Assembly (NCBI GenBank): GCA_037042915.1 | Contig: CM073201.1 | Coordinates: 2,604,001 to 2,668,000 of the forward strand | Length of the DNA stretch: 64,000 nt | Direction of reading: 5' to 3' | DNA from: Auricularia sp. M13 | Taxonomy: Eukaryota > Basidiomycota > Agaricomycetes > Auriculariales > Auriculariaceae | Made by a program: the position numbers and the translations under genes | Notes under the pieces: model-generated | What the model saw: the letters and a program-made list of their open reading frames with translations, nothing else | Told to the model about the DNA's origin: nothing | Databases searched by the model: none | In this document: in pieces, positions 40,067 to 63,733 of the stretch | How positions within the stretch are numbered: position 1 is the first letter of the stretch | Layout: each line of letters begins with the position of its first letter

Positions 40067-41410
40067 TCAGAAGCTACAGGAATAGATGCGCTGGGGAGCG
40101 GGATACACTGGAGCAGGCAAAGGATTGATAACAGCGTCCTTCGGCGTGGCCAGGCGCGGAGGTTCAGGCAAATTGGTCGGCGTACTTGGTGAATACCCAG
40201 GTGAGGTGGGGGAATAGTAAGGAGACGTGGGTGAGTGCGCAGAGGTACGACGAGGGGGCATGGGAGAATACTGAGGAGACGCAAACGAATAGCAATGGGA
40301 CGGAGAGGGAGAATAGACCGTCGGGGTATATGAAGAAGCCGATGTGGCTCCTTGGGCCAGCATGCGACCATCCAATTGGAGCTCGAATGCGGCCTCCAGC
40401 TCCTCTCGCAGCCTGAGAAGTTCGCGAGCATTCACTTGCGATCGCGGAGTCCCGGTCCTCGTGGAGACTGCGGCGGACTGGGGCGTCCCCGCGAGTACGG
40501 TCGTGGCGTGCGTAGTCGTGCTTTCTGTTGCGACTGCAGCAGACTGCGGTGTCCCTGCCAGTACCGCCGCGGGCTGTGGTGTCTCGACGGCATGAGCTGC
40601 TGCTTGCTCCGGGTCGGTTACTACAGAACGCATCCTGCAATCTATGTCAGTACGCAGAATAAGGCGAGAAAGGACACATGTACCATTGACAAAGGACGCC
40701 ACTTTCGACCAAAGCAGTGGACACGCGGGTAAGGCAGCGCGCGTTGCAGGGAATGCGATCCCCATCGAAACAGACGTCGTGGACATCTGCAATGAGCATG
40801 CCGTCGTCGACACCTTTCAGCACGGCGGACACGTTGGCCACCTTGTAATCTTCGAGACGCTGGAATTCGCTGATGTGACCTTCCTCGCTGTTAAGCAGGC
40901 AGCTGGCAAAAAGACGTCAGGTTTGACACATTGAACCGAAGTAAGATTTACCGGACGGTGACTGGCGGTAGACACTGTTGTCCGCCCCCAAGTATGACAC
41001 CGAAGACACCATAGGAAGGCAGAGTGACAGTGCCCTTGAAGCTGATAACTGGCGGTGGACGAGTAAAGCCGTCGGCGTCGACAGAGGCATCAGAGACAAA
41101 GACGTTCTGCGTCTTTACGAAGAACGTATTGCGTGTGAAATCCGCAGGACCAAGCACCTGAGCACGCGTGCCGTGAGGGTGGATAGTGACCAGGCGGGAT
41201 CGCGAAAGGGGACGGCAAGCACAACCGAAACTTGCGTGTCTAAATCGGCGGCAGTGAGTAAAAATTTGCACAATGTGAATTGAATGCCCACGAACAATAG
41301 AGCTCGATAGTGGAGAAATACGCGATGGCCCAAGTATCTCCCGGTCGCGTTGGTGGTGTGACGGTCGGCGATTTCAGGTCGAGGAATGCGTCGAGAAAAA
41401 GATGGGGCAT
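40067..41410 (-). CDS. Array family member A: two-beta-domain protein with Pol II CTD-like tail
   Basis: Exons 41410-41292, 41239-40952, 40902-40684 and 40634-40067 sum to 1194 nt (397 aa) in frame. Domain 1 has the family motif PHGTRAQVLG. The phase-2 intron 40951-40903 falls just before the conserved Cys (VRC). Domain 2 has YKVANVSAVLKG and IADVHDVCFDG. The tail contains near repeats of LAGTPQSAAV and then heptad-like YYSPTSPGYSPSTP and YSPSPSHCYSFASPQYSP, which resemble the RNA polymerase II large-subunit tail. The domains look OB-fold-like, but no homologue is certain. A TATA-like TTATAC lies about 45 bases before the ATG. TGACGTCA sites lie at 41653 and 41729. It looks intact. Confidence 0.72.
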
Positions 41411-41959
41411 GGTGAGCGATACGCACGGTCCAACCTTGGGTCTGCAAGACTGTTATACAGGTTGAAGATGTCAGATTGAAGTTTACATCCGATGTTCCAA
41501 ACCACCAGCCCACGACGACTCTCGCCGTAACGTCACAAACCGTAAGCCCATGAACACGATGCGGAGATGCGTAACAGCCTGGCTTGCAATCGAGAGTGTC
41601 GGGATATAATGGCAAGTGATCATCGATACCGGTCGCCACTGGCGAGCGCTGATGACGTCATCACGTCATAGATATTCCCACGTCAGGAAAAAGTATCCCG
41701 ACGTCAGGCACGAATACAAACTCATGATTGACGTCATCGCAGTCACACCGACGCAAGACCACTCGTTGAGCCATTCCGACTGGAAAGTGCGCCATGAGCG
41801 CGCAGCATGTGTTCAGGCTATCGCACATGGTTGGACATCGAGCGCGTGACCGTGAACGAGCAGGACGCGTTTCACAGCCTAGCATGATCCAACGAAGATC
41901 AGACCACGGGTTTCCCGCTGCATAGGCTTAGAGTGCGCGGAGGGGCGGCAGTAGTCGGT
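41411..41959. promoter_or_regulatory. Upstream region of member A
   Basis: Holds two exact TGACGTCA palindromes (41653-41660, 41729-41736) plus related ACGTCA half sites at about 41663 and 41695. They lie 240-330 bases before the start codon of member A. No gene is supported in the interval. Confidence 0.55.
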
Positions 41960-42935
41960 CTACACCAGCGGTATAAGCGCGCTGACGTGTCTGCCGGTGT
42001 TGTCGAGCACCTGGCGGGTTTGCATACTGCAAAAAATGTTAAGCATGGCTGTAACACCGTCAACGCAGCCAGAGCAACTCACCAACGAACTTCGCCCCCT
42101 GGTGGGCTACCGGTCCACGGGTGCCGATGGCCTGTGCCGTTTGCGGCGTGCTGGGCAGCAGAGAGTAGAGTAGGAGAAGACCGAGCGCCGACGGCCGATT
42201 GCACGCGCGGCTCTACGCGCACCAGTTCTCATGCTTCTAAAAATGGAAACAGGACAAAAAAAAATCTTCTCCTTCCCTAGCATGGGAAGGTGTCTGCTGT
42301 CTCGAAACACACGTGTCGCGATCGATAATAACGGTACAATTGCTGGGAAATTATCGAACAATGAATTACAGCTTCACCTCTGATTTCTCTCCATTCGCCT
42401 AACATCGAACACGAGCGAGCTGCGAGCCCATCTCATCGGTATCGCGGTCAAATCCACCTCATCGCCTGTCTTCAAGCCCAGCTTCGAACAACATGTCTCC
42501 CTGGAGGCTCTAAACGTTATCAATCGGTTTCACAGTACGAACTGCACCAGCGCACGAAATAATCGATCTATGCCGTCGACCAAGTAAGGATGAACGCGTA
42601 ACTACAGCATATCTCCACAGACTCTTGGTATCCGCCGCATATCCGATCATTTTGCCGCGGGCGGTGAACCACAGAAAACCGCGCTGTCGGGGACCATGCC
42701 ACACGCGTAAAATCTGGCAGGAGATTACGACTACGCGTCTGTCTTGGTCGATGTGCGCTGGACCCAGTACGAAAGCTATTCCACCTTCTTCGGCAGTCAA
42801 ATCTCGCCGCGGTGCGTAGACCTCGCACGTGATCCCGTATGGAGACCGCGTTTCGCACCGCGAGTGATAACGAGCGCAGCCGCCGATGAGAGTCAAATTC
42901 ATAAGCTCAAGAACGCCATAGACATATAGAGGCAT
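41960..42935 (-). CDS. Array family member J
   Basis: Starts at 42935 (MPLYVYGVLELM), resembling the N-terminus of member I (MSLAFNGVLALM). Domain 1 is TAEEGGIAFVLG with QDRRVVVISCQI. Domain 2, read in another frame after a presumed intron near 42570-42530, is LGLKTGDEVDLTA and SSLVFDVRRMER. A Ser/Ala-rich tail spliced over GTGAGT..TTTGCAG (near 42090-42030) ends TRQVLDNTGRHVSALIPLV at 41960. Two splice joins are not resolved, so the model is approximate. A TGACGTCA palindrome lies 118 bases before the ATG (43053). Confidence 0.45.
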
Positions 42936-43115
42936 TTGGGGCGAGATAGGAGGGAATTGTATGAGAGATCGTATGAGAGAAGGGCGTATCACTTTCTGAT
43001 CATATGTACTCCGTGGTGAGTTGCTTGTGAGGCGGCAGCAAGCCCGCAACAATGACGTCACGCGCCAGAGAGCACGTGATAGATTAGCGTGCCGTCATCA
43101 TCTCGTTACTCAGGT

Positions 43116-44173
43116 CTACATCGCAATGTAAGGAAGCGGTCGATTATCATGACGTAGTAGAAAACATTGGGATACTGCAGCGTGTTTTGTGTGAACGGCC
43201 ACGGGTCGGGCGTCATCGCTCGGTATTAGCGGCGGCGGCGACGAATGCGGGTTTGGAGGACGCAATCGACGACTCGCTCGCAGTCGTCTTCCTGGAAGCA
43301 ATGAATCAGTGTCTTGAGCGGTCTTCAGCAGTAACCAACCTGCGGCTGAATCATGACATTTGCCAACCTGAATCATCACGTCAGTAAGTGCACGATTTCC
43401 TGGAATATCACAGTACCATCGGCATGCAGCAGCGGACACGTTCTGTAGCGGACCCAGACGAGTCAAGCTTACAGCGGTGCAAGGTGGACCTTCGGCAAAA
43501 TCGACGTCGTGTACCATGACTTCGAGCCGGTCCGCGAAACTGGTAAGAACACCGGAGACCACAACGCGCGTGCCCTCTGCCACGTCGCCGAGTCCGGTCA
43601 AATGCTCAGTCGTCCTGTCGAATGTGCATCTGATGCATGGTATAAGCCTATAGCGCGAGGTACTCGGTAGGAAGATACCAACCGAATGATCACGGGCTCG
43701 CTGTGCGGTTCGCGCTCGCGCCCGAGGATTATATCCACAACGCTGGTCGTGGCGGACTCGCGAGCCAGATCTTCAGAAGCAATCCAACCCGGGAACATGA
43801 GAATGGGACCTGGCTCGTCCGAATCGGCAGGCTGCTCAGGCTCCGGTGTGTCGTGGCAATCGACAACGAAAATCGAGGAGCAATTCACGAAAAAAGTTTT
43901 GCAAACAATTTCGAGCCGGCCAATGACCTGAGCGCGAGTCCCGCGGGGATGTAACACGGTTGTGGAAGGTTCATAGACACGCTGCGCGACGCAGACGGTG
44001 AGATTGGATCCTGCCGTGGATCAGCTGGGGAATCGAAGTCCAACGACAAAACATGTACCACTACGTTCGACGGTAGCAACGTATGCGTATAGATAAGGAT
44101 CCCCAGACGCCCTGGGCTGTAGGACCCGGGGACAGGTGAGAGTGAGAACAGAGTCAAAAGTTGTCATCTGCAT
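43116..44173 (-). CDS. Array family member B
   Basis: Starts at 44173 (MQMTTFDSVLTL). A phase-1 intron of 54 nt leads to SNLTVCVAQRVYEPS and the domain 1 motif PRGTRAQVIG with KTFFVNCSSIFVVD. The conserved phase-2 intron (about 43690-43640) precedes RCTFDR. Domain 2 reads EGTRVVVSGVLTSFADR, then VMVHDVDFAEGPPCTA. The C-terminal exon join after AAACRW is not certain; a Ser/Pro-rich end follows. No stop interrupts the two domains. It is closest in motif wording to members A and D. Confidence 0.62.
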
Positions 44174-44518
44174 GGGGAGCAGGAGGGGTTGCAGCAGTTG
44201 TAACCACGCAGGCGGGCCCTTTATTCGATTTCCGTGCAAAATTTCCAGTATACACGCAGGAAGATTACTTTGCGTCAACGATCCTACTACGTCATTCACA
44301 TACGCCGTGCTTTCCACGCGTCCTAGATTCACATGAGTGGCGGGAATGCAAAAGACGGCTTTGCATTAGATCACAGATCGAGAACAGATACAGACGACTC
44401 GTTAGAATACAGCAGAGTCATTGGGATTTCGAACTGCTCAGAGCGCGGGCGGGCAAGGGTTCAATGAGAGCATAACACGGGGGGGACGCTGTGTCAAGAG
44501 ATCCGTCTTCACCCACAG

Positions 44519-45427
44519 TCAAAGAACGCAGACAGGGACTGATGTTGACTGCCCGCTGAGAATGTGAAGGTCTAAAGGCATGCTCTGTAAATATGCATCG
44601 CACCTGAAACACAGCACACTCACTCTGTAGCATTTGCGGGGCCGGTCACGCTGGGGGAAAGTGTGAGTGCTGGGATCAGCGTCGATGGCTAGAACTGCGC
44701 ACGAGCAAGTGAGCAGAGCCAATATCTTGCGCAGTAGCGAGCGCGGAGGAGAGATTTCGTTGGGGACTCGCACATCCAGTACTTCCACCATGAAATATTC
44801 ATTGCAGAAAGAGTGCAGCGTGCCGGAAATAACGACTTTGCTGCCGGCGTTCCCGGGCTCCGCGCTCTCATCGCTTCCACGACGATGGCACCTGAGAAAA
44901 TGGCGATGAGATTCCACGGTAAGCCGATCTCGCTGACAACGAACCGGATAAAGACCGGCGCATGAAGCCATTGTGCGCGGCGCTCGACCATAATGTCGTC
45001 GACCACGAGTGTAGGCTGCGCGACTGCGAGTTCCGCGGAACGCACCACCCCTCCGAGCAGAAGTATGGCCCACAGCCAGCTCCCGACGGCCTGATCTTCG
45101 AGTAGCTGCGGCGTGGCGGGATGTATGGTGGCATTGACGACTATAACAGTTTTCCCGACGACTTTTGACGCGCCTAGAACGCGGGCTCGTATTCCGTGCG
45201 GGAGGGGTCGGTCGGCAGTGGAGTTGGACAGCGACGAGATGAGCGCGGGTAGCTTGCGTCCTATAATATATGGTGTCAGCGGCCTCCCGTTGCGAGCCGT
45301 TGATGCGTACCATCGACAGATACCACGGAGAAATATACCACAATACGTGGGGAATGGATCCCGCCGCGGGCAACACGATAGGCCGGTACAGGAAGAGTGA
45401 ATCGTCGAGAAACGGGAAGGAAGTCAT
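44519..45427 (-). CDS. Array family member C
   Basis: TATA box (TTATATAG near 45458-45465) and ATG at 45427 (MTSFPFLDDSLFLYRP). A 58-nt phase-0 intron leads to domain 1: PHGIRARVLG, KTVIVVNATIH. The phase-2 intron (53 nt, near 44940-44890) precedes RCHRRGSDE. Domain 2 is AGSKVVISGTLHSFCNEYF and MVEVLDVRV. A last small exon ends SVPVCVL at 44519. The tail is shorter than in members A or E. One frame runs throughout with these joins, so the gene looks intact. Confidence 0.62.
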   Translation of the reverse strand: MTSFPFLDDSLFLYRPIVLPAAGSIPHVLWYISPWYLSMVRINGSQREAADTIYYRTQATRAHLVAVQLHCRPTPPARNTSPRSRRVKSRRENCYSRQCHHTSRHAAATRRSGRRELAVGHTSARRGGAFRGTRSRAAYTRGRRHYGRAPRTMASCAGLYPVRCQRDRLTVESHRHFLRCHRRGSDESAEPGNAGSKVVISGTLHSFCNEYFMVEVLDVRVPNEISPPRSLLRKILALLTCSCAVLAIDADPSTHTFPQRDRPRKCYRVSVLCFRCDAYLQSMPLDLHILSGQSTSVPVCVL

Positions 45428-46114
45428 GGTGGACTCTCGCTCGCATGCAGGCATTGCTTATATAGAGTTGAGGCGAGCTAAACAGCCAGCCTATGATAAA
45501 CCTTGCTGGATTCCGCTCTCACCGGCAGGACACAGAGCAGGGTGCTGTCAGAGAGGAATTTTCAAGCAAGAAAAACGATGCGCGAGTCGGAAGCGTTCTC
45601 ACCATAATGAATCTCGCGTGCGGCTCTATAGGGGGCGATACAACAACGATGACGTAAGGTCCATATTTGGCAAATCTCTGTTAGGATCGCCATTGTCATG
45701 AAGTCATGAAGGCCCTGTTAATCATTGCCAAACCGTGCGCTGCGGCTCAGCAGGACGGACTCGCGTATTCATGTGGGAATTATTAGGCACCGCTTTACTT
45801 CTGGTAATAGCTCGTGTGCACCAAGCGATGAAGGATCATGATTCTGCTCAGGACAAAAAGCGAGCGGAAGAGGCGATACACATGCTCTACAGCGCTGAGT
45901 TACAATGCTATGTACACGAATGCGGACGTGGAGAAGAAGTGAGAGACGGAATGAGGACGGAGCGAGTCTCAATCCCAGGACGGAAAACTGTCCGATGGGG
46001 CGGACGAGATTTCGCAATAAGTCAACGGAAAATTGCGGCGAATAATGGGAGACGGCGACGGCGACGAAGTCCTGGAAAATGTCAATATGTGCGCAATGGT
46101 CCTCATCGGCATGC
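45428..46114. other. Spacer between array members C and D
   Basis: No gene supported. It includes the promoter of member C and a TGACGTAA near-palindrome at about 45649. The plus-strand frame at 45735-46196 is antisense to nothing recognisable and has no promoter. Confidence 0.4.
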
Positions 46115-47012
46115 TCACCGAAGCTTCTTCATATCGCGCATGGTTTCGTTCATGGCACTCTTTAACCTGAGCGAGGTGCCCATTCAGAACTGGTGATGTA
46201 CGTAAAGCAAAGAGAAAACTCACCAACAGCACGCATCGCTGGCGAGCTCCTTGCCGCACTCGCGCGCGAAACTCTCCGCCGTGCAGGGCATCTCCAAGTA
46301 ATCGAAACTCCCGTCGTGGACGTCAAGCGTATATCGGCCGTCGACGAAACCAGTTAGAACGCCAGACACCGCGATGTCGGCATTCTCCTGGTAGTAGAAG
46401 TTCTTCAGGTGCGGCTTCGTAAGGTCGAAGTCGCATCTGGACGATGATGAGCAGGTGCATGCACAATGAACAACACGGCGTACCTGAAAATAAGGCTGCC
46501 TCTAACCTCGATGTCGAGGACCTCCCGAGTGGGCGACGAGATAGAGGCGTCGAGGACGCGCGACGGTTTGATGCCCAGAAAGACGAGAAATGTAGGTGGC
46601 CGGTCTGCAGGCGGGTGTGTGGTCGTCGTACCCGTGTCCCCTGCGTCAACGGCGACTACAGACGACGCTGTGACGAAGAGGCCGTTGTTGGAACCCTCGA
46701 AAGACCCGAAGACGCGAATGCGCGAGCCCGCGGGGTATGGCTGCAGCGTTGGCGTATCCACGACGGGCCGCGCGACGACAACCTTCACGTTCACATCTGA
46801 GACCGCAATCAGCGCGAACCGTGAAGAACAGAAAAAAAACCGGTACCGTTGAGCTCGAGGTTGCAAGAATAAGTGTGGAAGCAGCGATGCACCAAGCCCG
46901 GAGAGCGAACGACCGTACTGGTCTTGACGTTCAGCAGAGCCTCGAAAGTTGGGGCAAACTGCCTGGTGGCAGTCCAAGAGCGAGAGTGGGAGAGGGACTC
47001 GTTGGTGGCCAT
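46115..47012 (-). CDS. Array family member D
   Basis: Starts at 47012 (MATNESLSHSRSWTATRQF). A phase-1 intron joins to DVNVKVVVARPVVDT and the domain 1 motif PAGSRIRVFG with GLFVTASSVVAVD. The phase-2 intron near 46485-46440 precedes RCDFDLTKP. Domain 2 reads ENADIAVSGVLTGFVDGR, then TLDVHDGSFDYLEMPCTA, almost the same wording as member B. A final 60-nt intron gives a short end, WLKSAMNETMRDMKKLR, stopping at 46115. The model is complete and in frame. Confidence 0.62.
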
Positions 47013-47550
47013 CGTGCTGCTGATCCCAAAGAGAAAACGGGCGTCCTTTTAGGCAGCATAGGTTCTGGGTGCGAAGTTGTCAGTTAAGTTTCTTTTGCGT
47101 CATGTCCGTCCTGCAGGCTCAGCTCGCGTCACTGCTCATACGACGTTGCAAGTCGTCTGCGCAAGCGAGGCTGCGGTCATCGTTCGTCGACGGACAGCAA
47201 CTTGATAGTCGTCGGAGGTCCGTCTGCGACGCGCCTGCACGAAACGCGCCGCAATAAGTACTACTGCGCAATATCTTATGATGTACCTCCAAGGCATGAC
47301 GCCACTTTCGTTGGACGGATATGCGCGAATGTGACGTGTGCAATACTGTACGGCATGCACTGGGCACCGGCTACCAGTGAATCTCCGGCTTCCAGCAGCC
47401 GGAGCGGTGCCCCCCGTGCAAATGCGTCGCGCAAGCCGTACAGGCACACCAGCGTGTCGTTCGTACACGCTACACATAAATTGCACGCATTGTGATATCA
47501 GCTCATGCATTATCACACGGCAAATAAATACTACGACTCGTGTTACATAT
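47013..47550. other. Spacer between array members D and K
   Basis: Upstream region of member D. A 160-codon minus-strand frame crosses most of it but has no start context, domain or intron signals that I trust. Confidence 0.35.
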
Positions 47551-48012
47551 CTATACAAAGCGAAGTAAAACATCCACCAAAGCCTGAGTGCTGATTTCCC
47601 AGGTGTGGAAAAAATCATAGTGGCCCTGCAGATCGGGCATCTTGCTCTCTCTCAGCTCCTCATAGTTTGCTTGGGCCACCTGATCAATGATGACCTTGCA
47701 CTGCAGCAAAACATCTCGAACATCAGTGACGTCATCTTTGGCTTGCTTTACCCATGCTCGAGGATCAGGCACTGTGGCAAAGCCAGCGTCGTCATAACGA
47801 ACTGGAGGAAGCCAGCTGCCGACTTAACGGGTTCTTCAGAGTCACATACAACTGGATTTGTTGCAGTAAGTACGCGGTGTGATTCCACGCTAAGGAGAGC
47901 GCACCGCGAGCCTATTGCGAGGTACGTCAGGCGCAGGCAAATCGGAGAATTCGCGCAAAGTCTCGTGAATCTCAGCAGGCATCCACTCTACGGCACGGTC
48001 ATACTGCGCCAT
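47551..48012 (-). CDS. Small array gene K
   Basis: Two-exon small protein. TATA (CATATAAAG, about 48080) and ATG at 48012 (MAQYDRAVEWMPAEIHETLR). An intron of about 75 nt (near 47920-47850) leads to a helical C-terminal exon: WVKQAKDDVTDVRDVLLQCK, then GHYDFFHTWEISTQALVDVL. The last part resembles gene L (HWDFLTTWSLSAQMFVSL), so K and L are probably distant paralogues. There is no known domain. An exact TGACGTCA at 47727 lies inside its coding sequence; upstream, near 48105-48130, there are TGACGC and TTACGTCA variants. Confidence 0.5.
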
Positions 48013-48304
48013 AGCAAACGATGCTGTAAACGGTGGTACGATGTCTACCCTACCCGCGCGAAGACCCGTACTGCACGGACTTTATATGTTGAGTTCAGAT
48101 GATGACGCAAGCAGGATGACGCGTTACGTCATCAGATAGGAACTGCTCATTCCGCCCACTCGTCATAAGAGATACATGACGTTTTGTCTGATTCGCGAGG
48201 AAGCACGTGCTCGTGGGAACCACGAGCAAAAGCCGAGATCACAATTTGGCTATGTACTGTATTGAAAAGGGATTGAAGTATTTACAAACGAGGTCGTTAT
48301 TCTA

Positions 48305-48957
48305 TCACGGCGAACGAGACGAAACACTGTCATCCAGCGGCAATGGAGGATGGTGCCAAAAACAGGCGCGCACGAGGGATACAAACATTTGAGCACTAAG
48401 TGACCATGTGGTCAGGAAGTCCCAATGTACCTCTAGGTTTATATTGTTGTTACATGTGTTGTGTAGAACAGATTTATTCACTCTCAGGATTTCCTTGATG
48501 TCTGACGCACACAGTCGCAAGGCGCGGTGGAAGTCTGCGTGATCCGGATAGGACGACGCGGCCAACTTGATCCAGAGATTAACACTGGGCACGGAGACGA
48601 AGCCCTCCTTGTCGCAGGACACGTTGGGTAAACCCCGCTTGGCAAAAGGGCTCTTCTTGGCGTGAAGTATAGCTTTTAGGACGTCAACGGCACACCAAGT
48701 GACTCCATGCTCAAAACCCTCACCACCAATTTATCCTCGGGGACATAGTCATAGTTCTGATTGATGAAGCTAGACGGTTGTCTCTTCGATAGCGGTTTGT
48801 CGTCGTCGCTGAAGAACTCATATCGACTGCCGTCTGTGGCATTGCACTCCGACGGCTCGTAGTCTGTCTCGTCCTCAGGACCATCATTGTTGTCCTCCAC
48901 CGCCTCTATGTCCAGCAGCGAGGACACCACGGCGTTAACAGCTTTACGACGACCCAT
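48305..48957 (-). CDS. Small array gene L
   Basis: TATA (CTATATAAG near 48988) and ATG at 48957 (MGRRKAVNAVVSSLLDIEAV), followed by an acidic stretch and YEFFSDDDKPLSKRQPSS. The reading frame changes near 48730, between EDKLV and EGFEHGVTWCAVDVLKAI; an intron is not obvious there, so the copy may be damaged. The rest is SPFAKRGLPNVS, DIKEILRVNKSVLHNTCN and VHWDFLTTWSLSAQMFVSL. It resembles K at the C-terminus. A TGACGTCA palindrome (49092) lies 135 bases before the ATG. Confidence 0.42.
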
Positions 48958-49149
48958 TGAGATTGAGAGCACACGGATTTCAAGACACGACTTATATAGG
49001 TTCAGAACGACGGGATTTTGCGAGAACATAATGACGCGCGTATATCGAAACTTCGAGACTGAAAGATTACACCATCGGAGGAGAAGGGAAATGACGTCAC
49101 CGGGCGACGAAGAGGTACAGCATGAAAGAACGGTGAGAAAATGTGACAC

Positions 49150-49792
49150 ACGGCTCGTACGAGCCCTCGGCTTAGGCAGCTTAAGCACCATAGAGCCTAC
49201 AGGCATGTCAATATATTGCATATGGAAGTGATGATGACAACAAAGACGTACGTTGCAGGATTGAGGTCATCATACTGCTGTATGACTTCGCCGTTCATGC
49301 TGTCCCAACGCAAGAAGTCGAGACCGAGGTGCGAGGCGTCATCGCTCGTGCTATGCAAGTCATCAGAACACAGTGTCGGAATGCGCGCCCGGATCACGCA
49401 CGCAGCCATGATTTCCTCGATGGAAAATATGGAGGCCGCAGTTGAAGGAGCCTGCTGTGGCCTACTGTTGTGGTCAGCTAGGGAAAGGAAAAAAACAATG
49501 TACAGACGGGGCAACGGGCTCCTGTTCAGTCTGCATGGGAGCCCCGAGTTGAGTCTCGTCAGCCGCAGTTCTACAACCACAATAATGATGAGTAACGAAC
49601 GCGCGTGCGTCAAGGAGCTGTGGTACGTACGATTCCAAATTGCGCCCATCAGACACCGCGTCCACAACATCCATGGCCTCGCCTTGGTCGGCAGGAGAAG
49701 CAGAGGTCATAGACAGGTACGGGTAGGCCGTGGCATCCGTCGTAGACGTGGCGGGGAACGATGGACTGGGCGATTCGTAAATGGCGGCCATG
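49150..49792 (-). CDS. Small array gene M, or last exons of member E
   Basis: ATG at 49792 (MAAIYESPSPSFPATSTTD). Spliced over an intron of about 50 nt (near 49500-49455) it continues QAPSTAASIFSIEEIMAACV, DASHLGLDFLRW and IQQYDDLNPAT, followed by another GTACGT..TAG intron. The frame is open upstream of the ATG into the 3' end of member E, so it could equally be a C-terminal extension of E. The exact 3' end is uncertain. No domain is recognised. Confidence 0.35.
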
Positions 49793-53902: not shown

Positions 53903-56900
53903 TCATATCAGAATTTCGGTATACGTTACGTTATCGACTGATTCTTGGCCTGCGGGCAACCGTACCACGGCATGTTCTCGACGTCTCACTCGAGAGAGAG
54001 CGGTATACAGCTGTCCGTGAGAAAAGACAGGACGCCTGAGATCGATAGCAACAACATCCAAAGTCAAGCCTTGGCAGCTGTTGAATGTAGTCGCGTAAGC
54101 TGGCGCGAGCGGAAACTGTCGCCTTTGCAATGTCCGCCTGGTCTCCGGCAAAAAAGTCTCAAAGGTAATGCGTGGTATCAAGATATCCTCGTCGTCTATA
54201 CGGACGCCGGTGACAGTGTCCCGCAGTATGCGAACAGTAATCAGACGCGTACCAACGTCGACCACGACGACGCGAACGTTCTTGACGAGCCCACGTGAGA
54301 TGGAGAAGTTTCGTAATAGCCTGAACACTGCATTTGTTTTGATCACCGTAGAGTGAGATGGCAAGCCAGGCAAGTAGGCACGCGCTGCATAGTCTAACGT
54401 TGCTGCAGCTCGTTCAGGCATTCCGGCCTCGTCCTCCTCCTTGATTTTGTCAGCCGCAAGATACGTGCGTGCGGTGCCCCTCACTCGTGATAGAATCTGA
54501 GAGTTGTAGTGATCAATTTGCTTATTCGTAGGGCATAGGATTGATCGCTTCAAGCAGGCCGCTGGGTCGTCGATCACATGCTGAGGGTATGCAAACTCGA
54601 TTAGCTCGTCATCGGTATGCACCTTCCGAAGCATGTTCATTTCAACCTGAGGGCCTGCACCGTCACCAATGCTGTCCACCCAGGCTGCGTATTCCCCATC
54701 CTCGGCGTTCCGGATCGGCGCTGTCAATTGGCGAATCCGCAAGCTTTCCCACAAAGGAGAGCATCGAATTGAAGCATCCACTACCTGAGCGGGTTCCGCG
54801 GCGTACAACGGGACAGGTCTGCCTGAAATCGCCGGCAAGTATGACAATTTTACCACCGAAAGGCAAGTCGTTGCCACACACGCGCCGGCAGGTTTCCTCA
54901 CGCAGCTGAGGGTCGCCCTATTCGCCATGGGCGATTCATCCCAAATAAGAACACTGAAATCGCGAATGAGATCCGCGCGCGAATCTCCTGGTTCTATTGG
55001 TGACCGAAGGAGCTCGCTATACTCGTTAACAGGGATCTACCGTTACAAATGAGCCATGTTTGAACTACTGTATAATGAATTTACGCACCTTAAAGCAAGA
55101 GTGGGTCGTGCGCCCACCCTCGTACAGTAGCGCAGCGAAAGCCGAAGTAGCAGTGGGAAGGACGATTTCTTCACGGGACCTAACGAAGTCGCAGATGGCG
55201 TTGATGAGAAAGGTCTTGCCTCGACCCGCCTTTCCATCGATGAAAAGTAGTAGCGGCCGCTTGTTCACCACGGCGTCCATGACTTCATTGAATATAAGTG
55301 CCTGTTCTGGAGTAAATCTCGCCAGCGCCGGCGAAACTGCGGCGGAACTTCTCCAAATGGGCGCCCATCGCTCCCGCTCGTATTCTGCTTCTCCTTCGAA
55401 CGACTGAGGCAATGGAAGATTGAAGTCACCAAGGCTGCGCCCGAATTCGTCCAGCATGCGTGAGATTTCAGCCAGAGCGCGCGAATAGGCATTTGTCTGC
55501 GATCCGCCATTCTCGAAGTAGAAGTCCATACTCATCTCATCACGGAACAGCTCCCAGAGCTTCAAGGGAAAGTCGACTTCCTCCGCGTCGTGGATAATCA
55601 GGTGCACAAAAAGCAGTCTGATTTGCCGGGGGGTGCGAAGACACTGGACAGCCTCCTCAAGAGCAAACTGAGCCTCATGTTTGTCCGCAAAGAGACCCAT
55701 TGACTGCGCAGCTTCCTGGTATGAGGCATGCACAACACCGTCGATAGTACGTGCGTCCAAAAATGAGCGCGCTGGACGATTCAAGAGTATAGCTCGTAGA
55801 TAAAATAGCTCGCCCTGGGATGGCTTCACGGAAGCTAGTCGAACGAAATGCCGATGGCCCTCAGACCGCTTCAGCACGAGGCGCGTCATTTCGCCGTCGG
55901 GAACGTCTTGCTCTTTATAGTAACCTGGGGTGTCTGCCATAGCGTCGTCCCATGGCACATGGCGAAACCTGGCATAAAAGTCGGTGTACGTGACATCGGC
56001 GAATGTACATTCAGCGCCATTCCACATGTAAAGACCGTGAGGGCGGTGAAAATAGCGATCGAGGGTCGAAAAGTTGCTGGTAGGCCCATTCGCACGTCGA
56101 TACTGACGATGCTTGCGCGATTGCGGCAGGTGGATGACGAGCCCAGTGACACCGGGTGATTTGCTGGCAACGCGGAACCCAAGGAGACGCCATGCCGCTT
56201 CTCCAGCAGATAGGTAGCGCGCTCGCCAATAATCCTCTATCTCATCGATAAGCTCTGAACCATCGACACGGAGACGCGTGGGTACGATCAACGCCTGCGG
56301 CATCTTCAATGATGTATCCCAGGCACCAAAGAAGACGAAGGCTTACCTTTTCGTATGTACTTGAATAGGTATTGAAAGATGTGCGACGAGTTGGCGACCT
56401 TGAAGTTGATATGGCAGTCGAGGGCTCGCAGAAGGGGCAAACAGTGCGGAACGACATTGCTATCTTCCGCTTGACGTCGCCTGTACTGTGGGCGTCCGTC
56501 GAAGGACAGCGAGGTGGTGTCACGAATCGGTTTGGGATATCCGAAGCGGCAGACTGTGTCAGCCTCCGTGCCGTGGGCATCAAACACGCGCTGCCGCTGA
56601 CAGTATTTCGGTATGGTGACTTTGCTGGGGTCATCGCGCTGCACGGGATGTTTGTGCGTCATGAAACGCTGAACTAATGCAGCGTCAGCTGCACTTTTGG
56701 GCATCTCCGCAGAGACCACCGCATCAATGTCCGAGGCAGTAATGCAATCCCGTTCATATTTGATTAGGATATGACAGTGAGGGAGTCCTCGCTTCTGAAA
56801 CTCAACGGCAGACAGTCGATAAACCTGCGCGCGATTAGGCACGCCAAACTAAGCACGACAAAGCGCAAGCTTACTATACCACCAGCGTGCGGAAACATAG

Positions 56901-58248
56901 TCTTCAAAGTCTTCATCAAGACGCCCAGCTTCTGCTTGAACACGCGGGCGATCACGAGCGGAACATCTTGCCAGCCCTGGCCTGGCCGCAGCTTCTGGCG
57001 CACTTCTGGCCAGTCCGGATTGCAGGTCATTGTGACAAAGAATGTCGGTACGCCGCAGTTGGCAGCGATGGTGAGCGCGTCCGCGATCTGGTCCGAACAC
57101 CAAGCGTTGGAACCGAGGAATGAAGACGGAAGAAAAACGTTTTCAGAGTCCGTCGGGGCTTCCAATCCCATCAATGCCGCGTCTTCGCGGTGCGCTGCAG
57201 CTTGGCTAAAACGAATGTACGCGAGTCGCGACTCAATATTGCGCGTGAACATATCAACGACGTATTCATTGGTCAGTCTTCCAAAAATGGAAAACCTCTC
57301 TTCGCGTAACAAACGTGCACGGCAATGCCAGATCTGGCTCGTCATCACGTCCTGACCGTCGTCCGCGGCGGCAAGCCTGTTGTCTGCAGCTGAGGCCCTT
57401 CCCCAACCCAAAGTCCCATGAGGGAAGAACAGCGGATACACGAGTGGCTCCCAGAAGCGGTTCACCGCCGAAATATAATGCACATTGGACGACGTCTCGT
57501 CGATGGAATCCACAAAGCCCGGCGCTGGACGACGTTTCTTTGAGATTATTACTGACCTCAGCTACTCGCCTCAGTAAGGCCGAAACGCATGTGCCAAAAT
57601 GTACCTACTTTCGCATCGGATTCTACCGTATTGTCGAAACACATAATGCCAGCTATCTCGTTCGCCAGCGTCCCGAATGAGCAAGTGGACGTTGGGGAGA
57701 TCGCTCTCTGGACTTTGTCGGAAGACATTGATGAGTCGTACGTATGGGTTGACGCGCAGCAGCGCAGCGGAGAGTGCCTCAGTCCAGGTAGCTGGAAGCT
57801 TGCTGAACCAATTCGCAGACGCGTGTGGCTCTTGTCCTCTCATGAATCCATCATATAGCAGCCAGCGAACTGCTGAATTCTGGAACGTAGGCCTAACGCG
57901 ATGGAAAATCTTGCCCTCCACAGCAAAATGTGCAGGACCCGGACCAATTTCTGGGAACTGATGTGAGGACTCCAACTGAGCAAACGTGTACACGAGGTTT
58001 AGAAGTCTAGAGAGAGAGGAAACGCGAGGATCGGAAAGGAAAGCGCTGAATTCTTCAGGGAGCGGTGGCAAAGACGCAACATCATGCAGTTTCTCTCCCC
58101 GCGGTCCACAGCAAAAGCCGGAGGCTTCACCGGTGAGTAGCTCTATCCCACAATGATTACACAGATGCGGCATGTTAGAGTTCTTGTTGATGCCCCACCA
58201 CAGCGTGTTCTTCTTCAGTCGAGCGACTTTCCAGGTCTGGGAATCCAT
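53903..58248 (-). CDS. Helitron RepHel (rolling-circle transposase-helicase)
   Basis: HUH endonuclease fused to a PIF1-like helicase. It starts MDSQTWKVARLKKNTLWWG at 58248 with a Cys/His pair region (CNHCGIELL). Introns near 57627-57570, 56873-56822 (GTAAGC donor) and 56345-56300 are placed by frame. The Helitron N-terminal block shows EPLVYPLFFPHGTLGWG and TFFVTMTCNPDWPE. The Rep motif is EFQKRGLPHCHIL, with Cys where Ala is common, and the Tyr motif is FQYLFKYIRKG. The helicase has GKAGRGKT (Walker A), LIWDESP (Walker B), GDFRQTCPV and the C-terminal YTALSRVR. Two one- or two-base frame changes between 54.9 and 54.78 kb mean that this copy probably does not make full-length protein. Confidence 0.9.
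53903..58248 (-). mobile_element. Helitron, coding core; ends unresolved
   Basis: The coding core marks a Helitron whose 5' TC end should lie to the right of 58.25 kb and 3' CTRR end to the left of 53.9 kb. Neighbouring minus-strand genes could be cargo if the element is large. No terminal hairpin was identified with confidence. Confidence 0.6.
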
Positions 58249-58518
58249 CGGTACGCACAATGCTTACAATCACTCATTCCCGCGTACTTATAGGTAGAAT
58301 CCATGGGCCGATGTGCCATGGCGTCATATGCTGGGCACCATGCGTCATGTCGTATACATACAGCAATTGGGCACCATAATGAGAACGAACGACATCAGGC
58401 ACATAACGTGTCTGATGAGGAAGCCAAGCATGACGCAATTTTCACGCATTCTGGACCGATCTCGTCGCGACGCGGTATATCTGAACAAATAGGAGTTGTG
58501 CTACATTGAGAAAACACG

Positions 58519-58544
58519 TCACGTGATGTAATCGCATCACGTGA
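58519..58544. promoter_or_regulatory. Paired TCACGTGA palindromes upstream of RepHel
   Basis: TCACGTGA occurs at 58519-58526 and again at 58537-58544, with a 10-base spacer that is itself nearly palindromic (TGTAATCGCA). The unit lies 270 bases before the RepHel start and at the 3' side of member I. It could be an E-box-type factor site or a structural element; both readings are inference. Confidence 0.5.
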
Positions 58545-58634
58545 AGCCTAGAGCATGACATAATTTCTACTGTTCCCCGAACACAACTAAGGCACGAAAA
58601 TTTGAGCAAATGACGGCATGCTAGGATTGGGACC

Positions 58635-59284
58635 CTAGTGAGGCAGGCAGTGAATCAACTCGAGCGCTACAGCCGCCACGTGCAGCACGCGCACAACGAT
58701 GCACGACTCATTGTAGTTCCATCCTATACACCGTCCACATATGAATAGAGGTCTGGCGTAGCGCAAGCTCAATAGAGTTCTATTCGGCATGTTGTCTGCG
58801 ACACAGCTGCAGCGTGTCACTGAATATTGGCTAGATGGAGGGGTATCGCTTACAACACGTTGAATTGGCCTGCAATATCGACTGTCACACCATTGATTCC
58901 ATTGGGGCCCCCATACCAAGGACAAACCCGCCCGACTACGAGACCGATTCCAGTTATCAATGGTTGGTACAGAAGACGGCTACGGAGAGTGTACGGCTCA
59001 GCGAGCTCAACGTGCAACGCGCGAATAGTCGCCAAACCACGGAAAGACACTGTAATACGACCTATGATTTGGACATTCTGACCTTCGGTGAACGTGAATT
59101 CACAGTTCTCAGTGGCCTCGTCCCGTATCCACACCAATACCGCCTCTATCGGTATGCATAGTAATTCGCCCTCGATGAAAGTATCATAAGTTTCCTCGAT
59201 TACCACTCGGCTTTCCCATGGCATCTGTATAGACCGACACCGCGGGCGCATAAGAGCAAGGACTCCATTGAAGGCGAGCGACAT
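58635..59284 (-). CDS. Array family member I
   Basis: ATG at 59284 (MSLAFNGVLALM). Domain 1 has the motif TEGQNVQIIG, then ATIRALHVELAEP and GINGVTVDIAGQFNV. A phase-2 intron with a strong GTAAGC donor (47 nt, near 58855-58809) leads to FCVADNMPNRTLLS, keeping the Cys. Domain 2 is ARPLFICGRCIGWNYNES and IVVRVLHVAAVALEL. The protein ends at LPH (58635) with no low-complexity tail, the shortest of the family. A TGACGTCA palindrome lies 110 bases before the ATG (59394). Confidence 0.6.
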
Positions 59285-59646
59285 AGTGCCGCAGCAATCT
59301 CATCGCCTCAAGTCTTTATACCGATGGCACTATCACGTCACCACAGCGCTCCCCCATTTGCAGAAAAAAAAATGGCATTACACGGACACAACCTGACGTC
59401 ACATTCATACTACCGATACAGACACTGATAACGAAGCCTACACTACATTCGAGCAACGCGTTCGAGTCATGAAAAGTCCGCTGCATCTGACACCTACACG
59501 ACGCTATGCGACGTCAATTGGTTAGAAGACCAGCATGTGCAGAGCAACTGTGAAGACGTACACGATCTTCGGCAGCTGGGCGTTCAAAGGTGTCTGCTGA
59601 GCATGCCTTCCCGTTTGCATGGAAGGCCGAGCGCGGCGAGCGCGGC

Positions 59647-60690
59647 CTATGGCGAGCTCCTCTCTGGCTGATTGCGCACCGTCAGCTGGCTGCCACCTGA
59701 ACAAATATTAGGCGAGATAACACGGAATGCAACGAAACTCGCACCCTTCAACGAGTGAATCAGCACCGGGGATGCAAGACTCGTCGACGACATGAGGTCT
59801 GCATCAAAGTCAGCCGAGGTGTAAGAAAGGGTGCGGCTGCTGGCGTACCTGGTCACCGACGTCGAAGCATCGGGGACGCGCGACCCCACGCGTTTCGGAA
59901 GAACCGTTGTGTCATCGAAAACGGCGTGGTCGTCCACAATGTCGCGGTCAGCGAACGGGCTACGCAGGGCAACGAGTGGCAGGACTGGCACCGGCCCGTC
60001 GTAGCTAACGCGGACTTGGTGCACATCGACTGCCAGCTTGCCGTCGACCCAGCCCATGAGAACGCCGACAATGTCCAGGGGCAAGCCAACGGCCATGCTG
60101 CCCAGAGACCGGAAGCGCCGCTCATCGCGATTGAAGAAGCAGCTGCGAGGCACTGCATTCAGCGCGAGCACAGTAAGCGCTCAGCGATGTCCAACTCACC
60201 GGATGACGGTGGTCTGCACGGGCCAAGTGTCGTTGCAGTCAACAGCGATGTCAACGGAACGAACGCCAGGCTTGGCGATGTCGAGCTTGCCCAGAGCTGA
60301 TACTCTGCCAACAAAGAATAGAGTCGGCTCGAACTCGGCGTCCACAGAGCGGCGAGTAGTTGGTGTCGTCGCGACATAAAGACCCGTGGTGGTCGATGCT
60401 GTCACGAGCAACGCTTTGCCGACGACGCTCAAGGTACCGTAGACCTCGGCAACCGCACCGTGCGGAAGAGGGTCGCGGTTGTGCTCATCGACCGGCTGGG
60501 CAATTGAGAAAGCGAAACGCGAGCCTGCAACCCCGCCAGCGTTATGCGGAGCATGCTAGATGCTAACAGACTCACGTTCGATGTTGACACTCGAAAGATA
60601 GGTGTGGTATGCGTCGTTGGTGCCAGGCTCGGGACCGTGGTAAGTCGGGTTGAAGACGTTGAAGTACGCGTTGCAGAGAATGCCCGGCAT
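59647..60690 (-). CDS. Array family member G
   Basis: TATA (GTATAAAACG near 60746-60755) and ATG at 60690 (MPGILCNAYFNVFNPTYHG). A phase-1 intron leads to RSRFAFSIAQPVDE and the domain 1 motif PHGAVAEVYG, KALLVTASTTTG. The phase-2 intron precedes RCFFNRDERRF. Domain 2 reads LPLDIVGVLMGWVDGK, then LAVDVHQVRVSYDG. The tail is Ser/Thr/Asp-rich. After GTACGC near 59840 an optional intron changes the C-terminus, so the stop at 59647 is one of two choices. The domains are uninterrupted. Confidence 0.64.
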
Positions 60691-61330
60691 GATGCGACAG
60701 CTACCGAGGTGCGACAGACGCCGCCCGGCGGACCATCTATGTCCGTTTTATACCCAGCCAAAGTCATGCCATCATAGAGAACACGGGCACACCATGATAA
60801 GCTGGCAGCGGCGCATGACGCTGGACTTGACGAAAAATGTCCTTCGGTCAAAATTGGATGACGTTTATGTAATCAGCAAATTACGTCCGACGTAAGCGAC
60901 CGTAACTCCGAAGTGACAGTATGACGTGGGACACCGCGCACACAGACATGGCGGAATTATATTTCAGTTAAACTCAAAGCTGGATCTCATCACTGGGTTG
61001 CATCCGACGCAAAACATGACGTCAGCGAATTGCCGTCATGGGCACTGTCCCTAGGTTGCCGCGGCGGGGTGGATGCTGAGGGAAGTCGACTTTGGCGTCG
61101 GTGCCAACGGAGTTGATGACGACGCACGCGTCGAAGATCTGCGGCTTCGGAAGAGGTTCACACGGCTTGCGAACATGGGAATGTGCCAGGAAAAAGCGAT
61201 AATTCACAAAGTATCATAATGCCAATCAAGTGGTGATATTACAATAATGCTACACGCGCGAAAGATACTTGTAGATACAGAGATACAGAGACACTCGAAA
61301 ACCAGTTGAAGTCGGTGCGTCGGTGGACCA
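60691..61330. promoter_or_regulatory. Upstream region of member G
   Basis: Contains TGACGTCA at 61017-61024 and ACGTAA/TTACGT variants near 60860-60895. A minus frame at 61022-61207 (ending PRRGNLGTVPMTAIR) is protein-like but has no family match. No gene is called. Confidence 0.45.
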
Positions 61331-61889
61331 TCACCATGAAACGATCGTACGCATCTCGTTGTCGACTTTGTCGAGAAAGCCATTCAACTTCCCAATCCAT
61401 TTCTCGAAATGAGCGCGACGCTTGCGCGCAGACCGCTCGCCCGCTTCGAGCATGCCAGCTCCAAGTGAACGTCGAACTCCAGCGCGTCGAGCTGGAGACG
61501 AAGGCGATGTAAACGGCGAAAGACTATGTTTCGATAGGGAACGTCGCGAAGGGCGCGTTTCATCCACTTGGCGGGATATCGAGGATGCCTGATGCTACGC
61601 CAGTCGACGAGCGGCAACCCTCGAACGCCTCAGCCGAGCGCGCCATGTAATAGCACTGCGCGCTACCGTGAGTTACGCGCCACACTGAAGAAGCAGATGA
61701 AGACGCACATGCATTGCGCGCTGGGGGAACACGTCGGCTGGAGGCAGGCTATCGCGACGAACGATACTCGCCGCCCGCGATAGAATAGGCAGGGACAATC
61801 TGCATCATGTGAGTGCGATGAGCGGGCTGGAGAACACCTTCACTCACCACGGAAGCGAGGGGCCATGGCGGGATGTTGCGGTGCGGCAT
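61331..61889 (-). CDS. Small array gene N
   Basis: TATA-like CTTTAAATG near 61903 and ATG at 61889 (MPHRNIPPWPLASV). GTGAGT..TGCAG (61847-61800) joins to IVPAYSIAGGEY, and a second donor follows. The last exon reads SSPARRAGVRRSLGAGML and RAHFEKWIGKLNGFLDKVDN, ending RTIVSW at 61331. The middle exon is not resolved. No domain is known. A TGACGTCA palindrome lies 72 bases before the ATG (61961). Confidence 0.4.
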
Positions 61890-62044
61890 GCAGAAAGTCA
61901 GCATTTAAAGAGATCTACATCCGGACATCCAAGAAAGTGCAAACACAGCCACCCTGTTCATGACGTCACAAACAGGCAAAGAGGCACGGTTATGTCATTA
62001 CACTAACATCAACGCGTAGAGCGACGCGCGACGCAGAAAACACA

Positions 62045-62333
62045 TCAAGGCGTTCTGAACACTGTAGTAGGCAGGATACAAAAACAGGGCACCGAATCTT
62101 CCATTGCGGACGTTATCAAGCGGCCAATAACTTCCGCGTCTGCGTTTGTCGCGATTTTGATACGAGCGACGGTCTCCTAATGGAATATAAGGACATGTCC
62201 TATTCACACAGATGACTTGATGTGATAAACTCACATCGCCTACGCAGACGCTTAGAAGAAGCATATCTGCATTGCGTTCACAAATCACACAGCCATGCTG
62301 GCTCAAGAGAGCCTTCATCGCGAGAGCGTCCAT
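62045..62333 (-). CDS. Small array gene O
   Basis: Compact two-exon gene. ATG at 62333 (MDALAMKALLSQHGCVICER) runs to LLLSVCVGD. A GTGAGT donor and TTAG acceptor remove about 63 nt, and exon 2 continues ETVARIKIATNADAEVIGRL and SAMEDSVPCFCILPTTVFRT to the stop at 62045. The protein is about 76 aa and soluble-looking, with a CxxC early on (CVIC). No homologue is recognised. A TGACGTCA palindrome lies 140 bases before the ATG (62473). Confidence 0.5.
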
Positions 62334-62796
62334 GACAATCTGGCGAACACGGATGTTCGTGAATGGGGAATTCTGGCTCGCAGATCCGCCTTAAATAACC
62401 GCCGCCTTTTATCGTGACATTCGGGTCTAGATCTAGAATGTACCAGAACATACTCGGGACACAAAGCGGCGATGACGTCATGATCATTCACGTCAGAAAC
62501 ATATTAATTATATTAATTATAGGGCATAGACCAAGCCAACGTCTGGGAATTAGGATAGCATACATGTTTTTGAGAGTTTTCGTCTTTCTCGACACAAAGT
62601 GATAGTGGATGAAAACACAAAAAAAAAAGAAACACACGGACTCGGGAACGCGAAAGCAGGGTCCACATTCATAATCTACTCTTCGGGCGTTGCCGTTCTC
62701 ATCATGACGCGCCGTCGCAACAGCTCCGCGTATGGTACGGCGACCAGCTGCCGCCCTCTTAGACTTCGTAGCCTCCTCCGGATTACTAAGTGGAAA
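62334..62796. other. Spacer upstream of gene O
   Basis: AT-rich around 62500-62520 (TTAATTATATTAATTA). TGACGTCA at 62473-62480. No coding frame is supported. Confidence 0.45.
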
Positions 62797-63733
62797 TCAG
62801 AAATACGGCATGAACGCTGTTAACATGCCACAGACGTACACTGGAGCGGCCGGACTGGCCGCATCTTCCTCCACTGTCTCCTCCGGAACAGAAGCGTTCG
62901 CAAACGGGTTGATTTCGCGGCTAGAACTGAAGCGGAATTGAATTACAGCGCATACAGCGCGCACAGAAACAGTTTTTGACTCACGATGGCGCGTTGGCGG
63001 ATGCTGGAGTCATAGGGAAGCGACGGCGTTTGGCGGGAGGGCCTCCAGCTTCAACCCGTGCGGCGGAGACGGAGGCCGGCCTGGAACCGACATTAAGCTG
63101 GACGTGCTCAACATCGACCATGATATGTCCTTCCGGCTCATAAACCCCAAACGCAGTACCGACGACAAAGACACCGGTTCCAGACGGTGGACGAGGCGTC
63201 TTCTTCCAACGTGGCTTATTACCGTCGAAACGACAACTGCAGCAGGGAAGTCAACCGACGTTTACACGATCAAGATGCGGACTCACTACACGCGCGACGA
63301 TCGCGATTGATCGCGCACGTAATCGGAAGCTTGCAACTGATAACCAACAGAGATACCATCGTCCATAATTTCCGCGCTAGCAGCCATGTGACCGAGTACG
63401 ATCAGGGTGGGGAAGGCGCTGCGGAATGTGGTCCTCATAGGTGGAAGAATCGGCATCACCGGGAAAGGGGATGATGTGGATGGCATCTAGTTGAACACCG
63501 CCCTTGGGAGGCGCGTAAACCTTCGCGAGAATGTCGACGATTGTACCGTCAGGTAGCAGCGCATCATTGTTCGGAGCCCAGTGCCTTATTTCTGCCGTTA
63601 AGTCGAGTCCGCACGTCTGGATAACAGTGTCGTAAAAGACGTGGTGAGTCGTCTTATGGGTAGACGCGTTCTCCGAAGCAATGCGCCGGCCACCTGACAC
63701 TGCGAGATAGCCAGCCAACAGGAAGGAAGTCAT
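62797..63733 (-). CDS. Array family member H
   Basis: TATA (CTATAAAATG near 63790-63799) and ATG at 63733 (MTSFLLAGYLAVSGGRR). Domain 1 has the motif PDGTIVDILA with VQLDAIHIIPFPGD. The frame then shifts by one base near 63440 before FPTLIVLGHMAASAEI, the one defect seen. The phase-2 intron (50 nt, near 63282-63233) precedes CRFDGNKPRWKK. Domain 2 is SGTGVFVVGTAFGV and HIMVDVEHVQLNVG. A 58-nt intron leads to the tail SSSREINPFANASVPEE, ending at 62797 (LTAFMPYF). Otherwise complete. Confidence 0.57.

What the first reader, a model, noticed from the sequence alone, without database searches (positions are those of the whole stretch)
40067..63733. A 24-kb one-strand array of a divergent two-domain gene family wrapped around a Helitron
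Ten minus-strand genes share one plan. Domain 1 motifs line up: PHGTRAQVLG, PRGTRAQVIG, PHGIRARVLG, PAGSRIRVFG, PDGSVVDLRG, PGGTLVRVTG, PHGAVAEVYG, PDGTIVDILA and TEGQNVQIIG. Domain 2 motifs line up too: EGTRVVVSGVLTSF, AGSKVVISGTLHSF, ENADIAVSGVLTGF, LGTAVIVSGVICGW and SGTGVFVVGTAFGV. In nine of them a phase-2 intron sits just before a conserved Cys. Between the motifs the proteins have diverged almost beyond recognition, as in fast-evolving or conflict-driven families. The strand pattern and motifs are seen; the OB-fold and ssDNA-binding reading, and a link to the Helitron RepHel gene at 53.9-58.2 kb, are inference.
Basis: partly seen in the sequence, partly recalled or inferred. Interest (0 to 1): 0.92.

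Follow-up and report, generated by a model that had tools for sequence, protein, structure and literature searches.

The report
Fungal array of RPA-like double-OB genes
A 24-kb stretch of what looks like a fungal genome carries nine duplicated but very different genes for a small protein whose first half is predicted to have the fold of DNA-replication (RPA/SSB) proteins; what the family does is not yet known.

Summary
The array is real. Nine minus-strand genes (A-I, 40.07-63.73 kb) are paralogues of one two-domain protein. Leave-one-out profiles score eight at 27.7-126.4 bits (best of 500 shuffles each at most 13.2); G is marginal by profile but shares plan and intron. All nine have a 47-57 nt phase-2 intron at the conserved Cys; seven share a phase-1 intron. 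A tenth candidate (42.4-42.9 kb) is not supported. AlphaFold models of domain 1 from two members, moderate in confidence, have five strands, and Foldseek ranks OB-fold proteins (RPA, SSB, PriB, LysRS) first. Domain 2 is split by an intron and could not be folded. Five members need changes of reading frame; B, D, G, H are open. RepHel is real, but no Helitron 3-prime end was found. New: TGACGTCA occurs nine times in the array block and never in the 40 kb beside it, though close upstream of only three of nine members. Best reading: a lineage-specific birth-and-death family of RPA/SSB-like double-OB proteins; ssDNA binding is plausible but untested.

The parts
40067..41410 (-). Member A: exons 41410-41296, 41239-40952 (a frame change just before the domain-1 motif), 40902-40684, 40634-40067; phase-1 and phase-2 introns; Pro/Ser/Thr tail with RNA-polymerase-II-CTD-like YSPTSP repeats
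42374..42935 (-). Candidate X: ORF 42935-42510 with a possible exon 3; membership not supported by profile
43213..44173 (-). Member B: exons 44173-44065, 44010-43683, 43629-43420 and a short tail placed by eye; open through both domains; weak OB-fold Pfam hit in domain 2
44642..45427 (-). Member C: exons 45427-45311 (a frame change within), 45260-44945, 44891-44642
46224..47012 (-). Member D: exons 47012-46847, 46796-46484, 46436-46224; open through both domains; a tail continues downstream (by eye)
50585..51307 (-). Member E: exons 51307-51196, 51147-50867, 50812-50585 (two frame changes); Ser/Pro/Thr-rich stretch downstream
52430..53344 (-). Member F: exons 53344-53232 (a frame change within), 53178-52866, 52815-52430
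53903..58260 (-). RepHel (Helitron Rep-helicase) gene in several reading frames: probable introns and at least two close frame changes near 54.9 kb (by eye); no Helitron 3-prime end found
58638..59284 (-). Member G: exons 59284-58854, 58806-58638; phase-2 intron, no phase-1 intron; open; domain 1 folded by AlphaFold
59849..60690 (-). Member H: exons 60690-60576, 60524-60200, 60142-59849; open through both domains; GTGAGT..CAG introns of 51 and 57 nt
62999..63733 (-). Member I: exons 63733-63290 (a frame change within), 63236-62999; no phase-1 intron; domain 1 folded by AlphaFold
41653..62480 (.). Nine copies of the palindrome TGACGTCA at 41653, 41729, 43053, 47727, 49092, 59394, 61017, 61961, 62473; none in 1-40000

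Best explanation
A lineage-specific tandem family of small proteins with two consecutive OB folds of the RPA/SSB type and variable low-complexity tails, in a nuclear genome that is probably a basidiomycete's. The genes arose by repeated local duplication followed by strong divergence and partial decay (birth and death). Each copy has its own promoter; frequent TATA boxes and an excess of a CRE-like palindrome in the block hint at common induction. The most likely molecular role is binding single-stranded nucleic acid, or docking onto another OB protein such as an RPA subunit, in the nucleus. The Helitron most likely inserted between F and G and is not functionally coupled. Shown: paralogy, intron plan, one-strand layout, motif excess in the block. 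Predicted: OB fold of domain 1. Inferred: OB fold of domain 2, ligand, cell compartment, induction, host group.
For: Leave-one-out profiles against shuffles. Two intron positions shared in phase. G and I group in the tree (UFBoot 85) and both lack intron 1. AlphaFold: five strands in gI domain 1 (pLDDT 69.7, pTM 0.51) and gG domain 1 (64.4, 0.45). Foldseek: for gI a chain of an RPA complex entry first (E 0.025), then SSB and RPA32; for gG an archaeal RPA OB domain first (E 0.0033); in the viral library 14 of the 50 listed hits are named ssDNA-binding proteins. The only PDB sequence hit up to E 10 of the whole-family profile is 4gnx_A (E 0.32), recalled to be Ustilago maydis RPA14. Weak tRNA_anti-codon (OB) hit of gB in domain 2. 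TATA box about 35-65 nt upstream of the ATG in seven of nine members, no chance control run; TGACGTCA nine to none between block and flank, top of all 256 palindromic octamers.
Against: No sequence match to an OB family is significant alone (E 0.32, 0.18, 0.047), and unrelated Pfam models score as well. Domain-only profiles gave only chance-like PDB hits; domains 1 and 2 do not match each other (hhalign probability 1.3%). AlphaFold confidence is moderate on nine mostly partial rows; the weakest of five models had mean pLDDT 50.1 (gI) and 45.4 (gG). No Foldseek hit reached E 0.001. Domain 2 is unfolded. Five of nine members carry frame changes. The full TGACGTCA palindrome lies within 400 nt upstream of only three of nine members (A, G, H). 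Nothing tests nucleic-acid binding. No fungal genomes could be searched for relatives.
Confidence: 0.6

Rival explanations
1. The proteins are OB-fold but not nucleic-acid binders: acidic OB pairs used for protein-protein contacts, in the way recalled for RPA14/RPA32 or Stn1/Ten1, for example as RPA decoys or assembly partners.
For: Seven of nine two-domain regions have a negative net charge (-2 to -12; C +2, F +1); the one whole-family PDB hit is a chain recalled to be RPA14; RPA14/32 entries and Stn1-Ten1 are among the Foldseek hits.
Against: Acidic pI is also common among true ssDNA-binding proteins (recalled); an invariant Tyr in the second predicted strand region of domain 1 in 9 of 9 would suit base stacking, but its facing was not checked.
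Confidence: 0.25
2. The OB genes and the RepHel gene form one composite unit, a giant Helitron-like element with RPA-like cargo, analogous to plant Helitrons that carry RPA genes.
For: Same strand, RepHel embedded in the array, five TGACG/CGTCA cores within 400 nt upstream of RepHel, lower GC than the flank (0.544 against 0.589). Plant and some animal Helitrons carry RPA homologues (PMC4683698, passages).
Against: No 3-prime hairpin plus CTRR end was found within 600 nt of RepHel; the 5-prime end was not searched. Identity of about 20% between paralogues shows an old family, not recent cargo. PMC5148889 reports no RPA-like genes in Fusarium Helitrons (passage), PMC4289320 no RPA domain in the RepHel ORF of its P. 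ostreatus Helitrons (passage). TGACG cores are short and frequent (111 in array block, 127 in rest).
Confidence: 0.08
3. The array is mostly pseudogenes: a decaying relic with few working members.
For: A, C, E (twice), F and I need frame changes; RepHel has at least two as well, by eye.
Against: B, D, G and H are open; the modelled pieces of A-I hold no stops and all modelled splice sites are GT..AG (pieces were chosen with this in view), which suits recent damage or assembly indels. An allantoicase-ureidoglycolate lyase stretch of about 1.5 kb coding shows no frame break, too little to settle the error rate.
Confidence: 0.2

Closest known systems
Replication protein A subunits (RPA14/RPA32/RPA70 OB domains) and archaeal RPA
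   Same: Predicted five-strand OB barrel in domain 1; first Foldseek hits; the only whole-family PDB sequence hit (E 0.32) is a chain recalled to be Ustilago maydis RPA14
   Different: No significant sequence match; nine tandem, highly divergent copies; two domains plus variable low-complexity tails; no RPA domain order tested
Plant Helitron RPA genes (PHRPA; Mothra family, PMC4683698, passages)
   Same: RPA-like OB gene(s) near a RepHel gene
   Different: Here many divergent paralogues outside any demonstrated Helitron boundary; no sequence link to PHRPA tested
HELPO1 captured genes of Pleurotus ostreatus (PMC4289320, passages)
   Same: Genes of unknown function beside a fungal RepHel, which there has introns
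   Different: cap genes lie inside delimited Helitrons, one to four per element, downstream of RepHel; here nine paralogues on both sides and no ends found
Bacterial SSB / PriB and mitochondrial Rim1
   Same: OB fold among the listed Foldseek hits
   Different: Single-OB oligomeric proteins (recalled); no sequence hit

Membership tests
One paralogous gene family (this array) | Members found by a profile built from the others | tested here: met
   8 of 9 far above 500 shuffles each; G marginal; X fails
One paralogous gene family (this array) | Shared intron positions and phases | tested here: met
   phase-2 intron 9 of 9; phase-1 intron 7 of 9; joins partly chosen to fit
OB-fold proteins | Domain 1: five-strand barrel matching OB structures | tested here: met
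   2 of 9 members folded; moderate confidence, best E 0.0033, none below 0.001
OB-fold proteins | Domain 2: five-strand barrel | tested here: inconclusive
RPA / ssDNA-binding protein family | Significant sequence homology to RPA | tested here: not met
   best E 0.32; no RPA model among Pfam hits for the five members scanned or the nine domain-2 sequences
RPA / ssDNA-binding protein family | Binds ssDNA | not testable with these tools
   needs biochemistry
Helitron transposon (RepHel gene) | Rep (Helitron_like_N) plus PIF1 helicase | tested here: met
Helitron transposon carrying the OB genes as cargo | Termini (5-prime TC, 3-prime hairpin and CTRR) enclosing the genes | tested here: inconclusive
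   no 3-prime end within 600 nt of RepHel; wider search and 5-prime end not done

The most novel reading that the evidence does not exclude
A co-induced arsenal of rapidly diversifying RPA-like double-OB proteins that a fungus keeps against (or that rides with) rolling-circle mobile DNA: each copy would coat or sequester single-stranded intermediates, or bind host RPA, and the CRE-like and TATA elements of the block would switch it on under stress.
Probability: 0.1. Interest if true: 0.88.

Novelty: new variant of a known kind. Interest (0 to 1): 0.52.

Why it matters
[quoted passage not shown] A tandem block of nine diverged RPA/SSB-like double-OB proteins would be an unusual expansion. It would offer a ready set of natural variants for asking what drives OB-fold diversification: mobile elements, ssDNA viruses, telomeres or stress. 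No Pfam model matched the members scanned at its cut-off, so such arrays may be missed elsewhere.

Tried and rejected
No whole genome is held for the window, so host and genome-wide copy number stay unknown. No tRNA and no Rfam match at gathering score. Conserved-patch search of viral contigs was impossible for A1; gB alone and one RepHel piece found no relatives there. DNA repeats: only short, imperfect ones and no tandem repeats. Internal duplication of domain 1 into domain 2: not supported. Subtelomeric position: no TTAGGG-type repeats in the window. Physical against sequence distance: weak, not significant (rho 0.26, 337 of 5000 permutations as high). Alignments with exon-1 fragments or whole gG misplaced strands and were not used for folding; A5 was not used either. 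Literature: eight searches ran. Three returned nothing; in the others I saw listings (10 of 13 papers: 12 of 90) and none of the listed titles or abstract starts described this family; only three papers were opened, by passages. Subscription journals are mostly outside that library.

The nine-row counts leave out X. The frame changes rest on reading frames chosen by homology, and their exact size was not determined. Exon ends were chosen partly because they keep the shared plan, so the intron table is not fully independent of the alignment. The starts of the small interleaved genes were picked by eye. In one search the tail of gA was joined in the wrong phase; its frame was read instead.
Full report
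What was checked. Three-frame reading of the minus strand from 40 to 64 kb outside RepHel gave gene models with short GT..AG introns. Nine genes, A to I, share one plan: a short N-terminal part (a separate exon in seven), a first domain with a P-x-G-type motif, a linker, a second domain with a conserved Cys and a second G-x-x-V-x-V-x-G-type motif, then, by eye, a tail of variable length in several.

Homology against chance. Profiles built without each member scored the left-out one at 70.8 (A), 126.1 (B), 73.2 (C), 93.6 (D), 34.5 (E), 63.1 (F), 126.4 (H) and 27.7 bits (I); the best of 500 shuffles was at most 13.2 for each of these eight. G scored 5.8 bits with its ORF (1 of 500 shuffles as high) and 5.6 with the spliced model (0 of 1000), so G stands on profile, motif and intron together. 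Over all ten rows, X included, the median pairwise identity is about 20%, from 14% to 34%. In six-frame translations of 1-40 kb the lowest E-value is 2.2.

Introns. A phase-2 intron stands at the conserved Cys in nine of nine members: A 49, B 53, C 53, D 47, E 54, F 50, G 47, H 57, I 53 nt. In eight the acceptor AG lies one base before the Cys codon; in F the Cys is one codon further. A second intron, phase 1, is shared by A, B, C, D, E, F and H (48-56 nt) and absent from G and I. In the tree G and I are sisters (UFBoot 85), which fits one loss. By eye A, B and D also share a third join at a Trp codon. Caveat: exon ends were partly chosen to keep the plan.

Damage. A, C, F and I each need one change of reading frame and E two; B, D, G and H are open. 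RepHel, by eye, also changes frame at least twice near 54.9 kb. A conserved host gene, an allantoicase-ureidoglycolate lyase fusion at 19.9-17.8 kb, shows no break over about 1.5 kb of coding sequence in a model with eight introns. That is too short to tell pseudogenes from assembly indels. The modelled pieces of A-I hold no stops and keep their splice sites, which suggests that the damage is young or technical; but the pieces were chosen with this in view.

Fold. The two models are not independent, since each query is the only other full-length row of the other. Both show five strands in OB order: gI pLDDT 69.7, pTM 0.51, the five models ranging down to 50.1; gG 64.4 and 0.45, down to 45.4. 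Foldseek against the PDB put a chain of an RPA complex entry first for gI (8c5z_A, E 0.025), followed by SSB, RPA32, Rim1, PriB and HIN chains (50 of 834 matches listed), and an archaeal RPA OB domain first for gG (2k5v, E 0.0033), followed by LysRS and SSB chains (50 of 800 listed). Among the listed rows, those I recognise are OB-fold proteins; that label is recalled. None reached E 0.001. In the viral library 14 of the 50 listed hits of gG are named ssDNA-binding proteins; most others are uncharacterised or unnamed. By sequence the only PDB hit up to E 10 of the whole-family profile was 4gnx_A (E 0.32), recalled to be Ustilago maydis RPA14. The domain-2 profile hit only a capsid protein (E 0.42) and the domain-1 profile only a ribosomal protein (E 1.6). 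Pfam gave gB a weak tRNA_anti-codon hit in domain 2 (E 0.18). Of nine domain-2 sequences one, not named by the call and presumably gB, hit it at E 0.047; DUF3333 (0.051) and Kelch_2 (0.059) scored alike, so this is weak. Domain 2 is split by its intron in every member and could not be folded; its pattern (two strand-like stretches, one ending in Cys, a helix-like stretch, two more) suits an OB. Domains 1 and 2 do not align by profile.

Regulation. A TATA box lies about 35-65 nt before the ATG in A, C, E, F, G, H and I, not in B or D; no chance control was run. The palindrome TGACGTCA occurs nine times in 40-64 kb and not in 1-40 kb; it was noticed first and tested afterwards, but among all 256 palindromic octamers no other comes near (next best 5 against 6). 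Its 7-mer half-sites number 25 in the array block (18 of them from the nine palindromes) against 5.2 +- 2.7, maximum 13, in 100 first-order Markov sequences, and 8 against 7.9 in the rest. Eight of the nine lie 91-327 nt upstream of a minus-strand start: A (two), G, H, the unsupported X, and three small genes whose starts I picked by eye; the ninth (47727) lies inside a small ORF. So only three of nine members have the full palindrome within 400 nt upstream; B, C, D, E, F and I have only shorter half-sites or TGACG cores, and cores are common (111 in the block, 127 in the rest). The site is that of CREB/ATF bZIP factors (recalled); shared induction is a hint to be tested, not shown.

The Helitron. 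The RepHel domains are clear and the gene probably has introns, as reported for P. ostreatus RepHel (PMC4289320, passage). No hairpin followed by CTRR was found within 600 nt after it; the 5-prime end was not searched. PMC4683698 (passages) describes RPA genes in plant Helitrons and cites RPA homologues in zebrafish and sea anemone Helitrons and Drosophila Helentrons. PMC5148889 (passage) found no RPA-like gene in Fusarium Helitrons; PMC4289320 (passages) found no RPA domain in the RepHel ORF. The array block is slightly less GC-rich than the flank (0.544 against 0.589). The simplest reading is an insertion between F and G.

Host. GC 57%, short introns, a Helitron and the fused purine-degradation gene suggest a basidiomycete; this is inference, as no genome is held.

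Mechanism and verdict. The best-supported account is a lineage-specific birth-and-death family of double-OB, RPA/SSB-like proteins. ssDNA binding or docking to RPA is inferred from fold alone. The composite-transposon and defence readings are possible but rest on position. The eight paper searches that ran showed no description of such a family in their listings.

Noticed in passing
47554-47823 and 48308-48730 (minus): Two small interleaved ORFs are homologous to each other (31% over 87 aa, E 1.5e-9 against the six-frame window), a second mini-family inside the array; no significant Pfam family.
   Followed up: partly
41653-62480: TGACGTCA palindrome nine times in 40-64 kb and none in 1-40 kb; eight of nine lie 91-327 nt upstream of a minus-strand start, of which only A, G and H are supported family members.
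   Followed up: yes
40067-40634 (minus): Tail of member A carries YSPTSP repeats like the RNA polymerase II CTD; Pfam RNA_pol_Rpb1_R E 0.001, just below its cut-off.
   Followed up: partly
17834-19900 (minus): Allantoicase fused to ureidoglycolate lyase, modelled with 8 short introns; no frame break seen.
   Followed up: yes
54800-55100 (minus): RepHel gene has a probable intron and, by eye, two close frame changes in the PIF1 region.
   Followed up: partly
58520-58543: Perfect 9-bp inverted repeat CACGTGATG..CATCACGTG between member G and RepHel, seen by eye; role unknown.
   Followed up: no
4446-4976, 12084-13247, 22717-23697, 27217-27642, 28594-29403 (plus): Host-like genes: MYND finger, F-box, alpha/beta hydrolase, TPR, methyltransferase; MYND, hydrolase and TPR are below the Pfam cut-off.
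   Followed up: no
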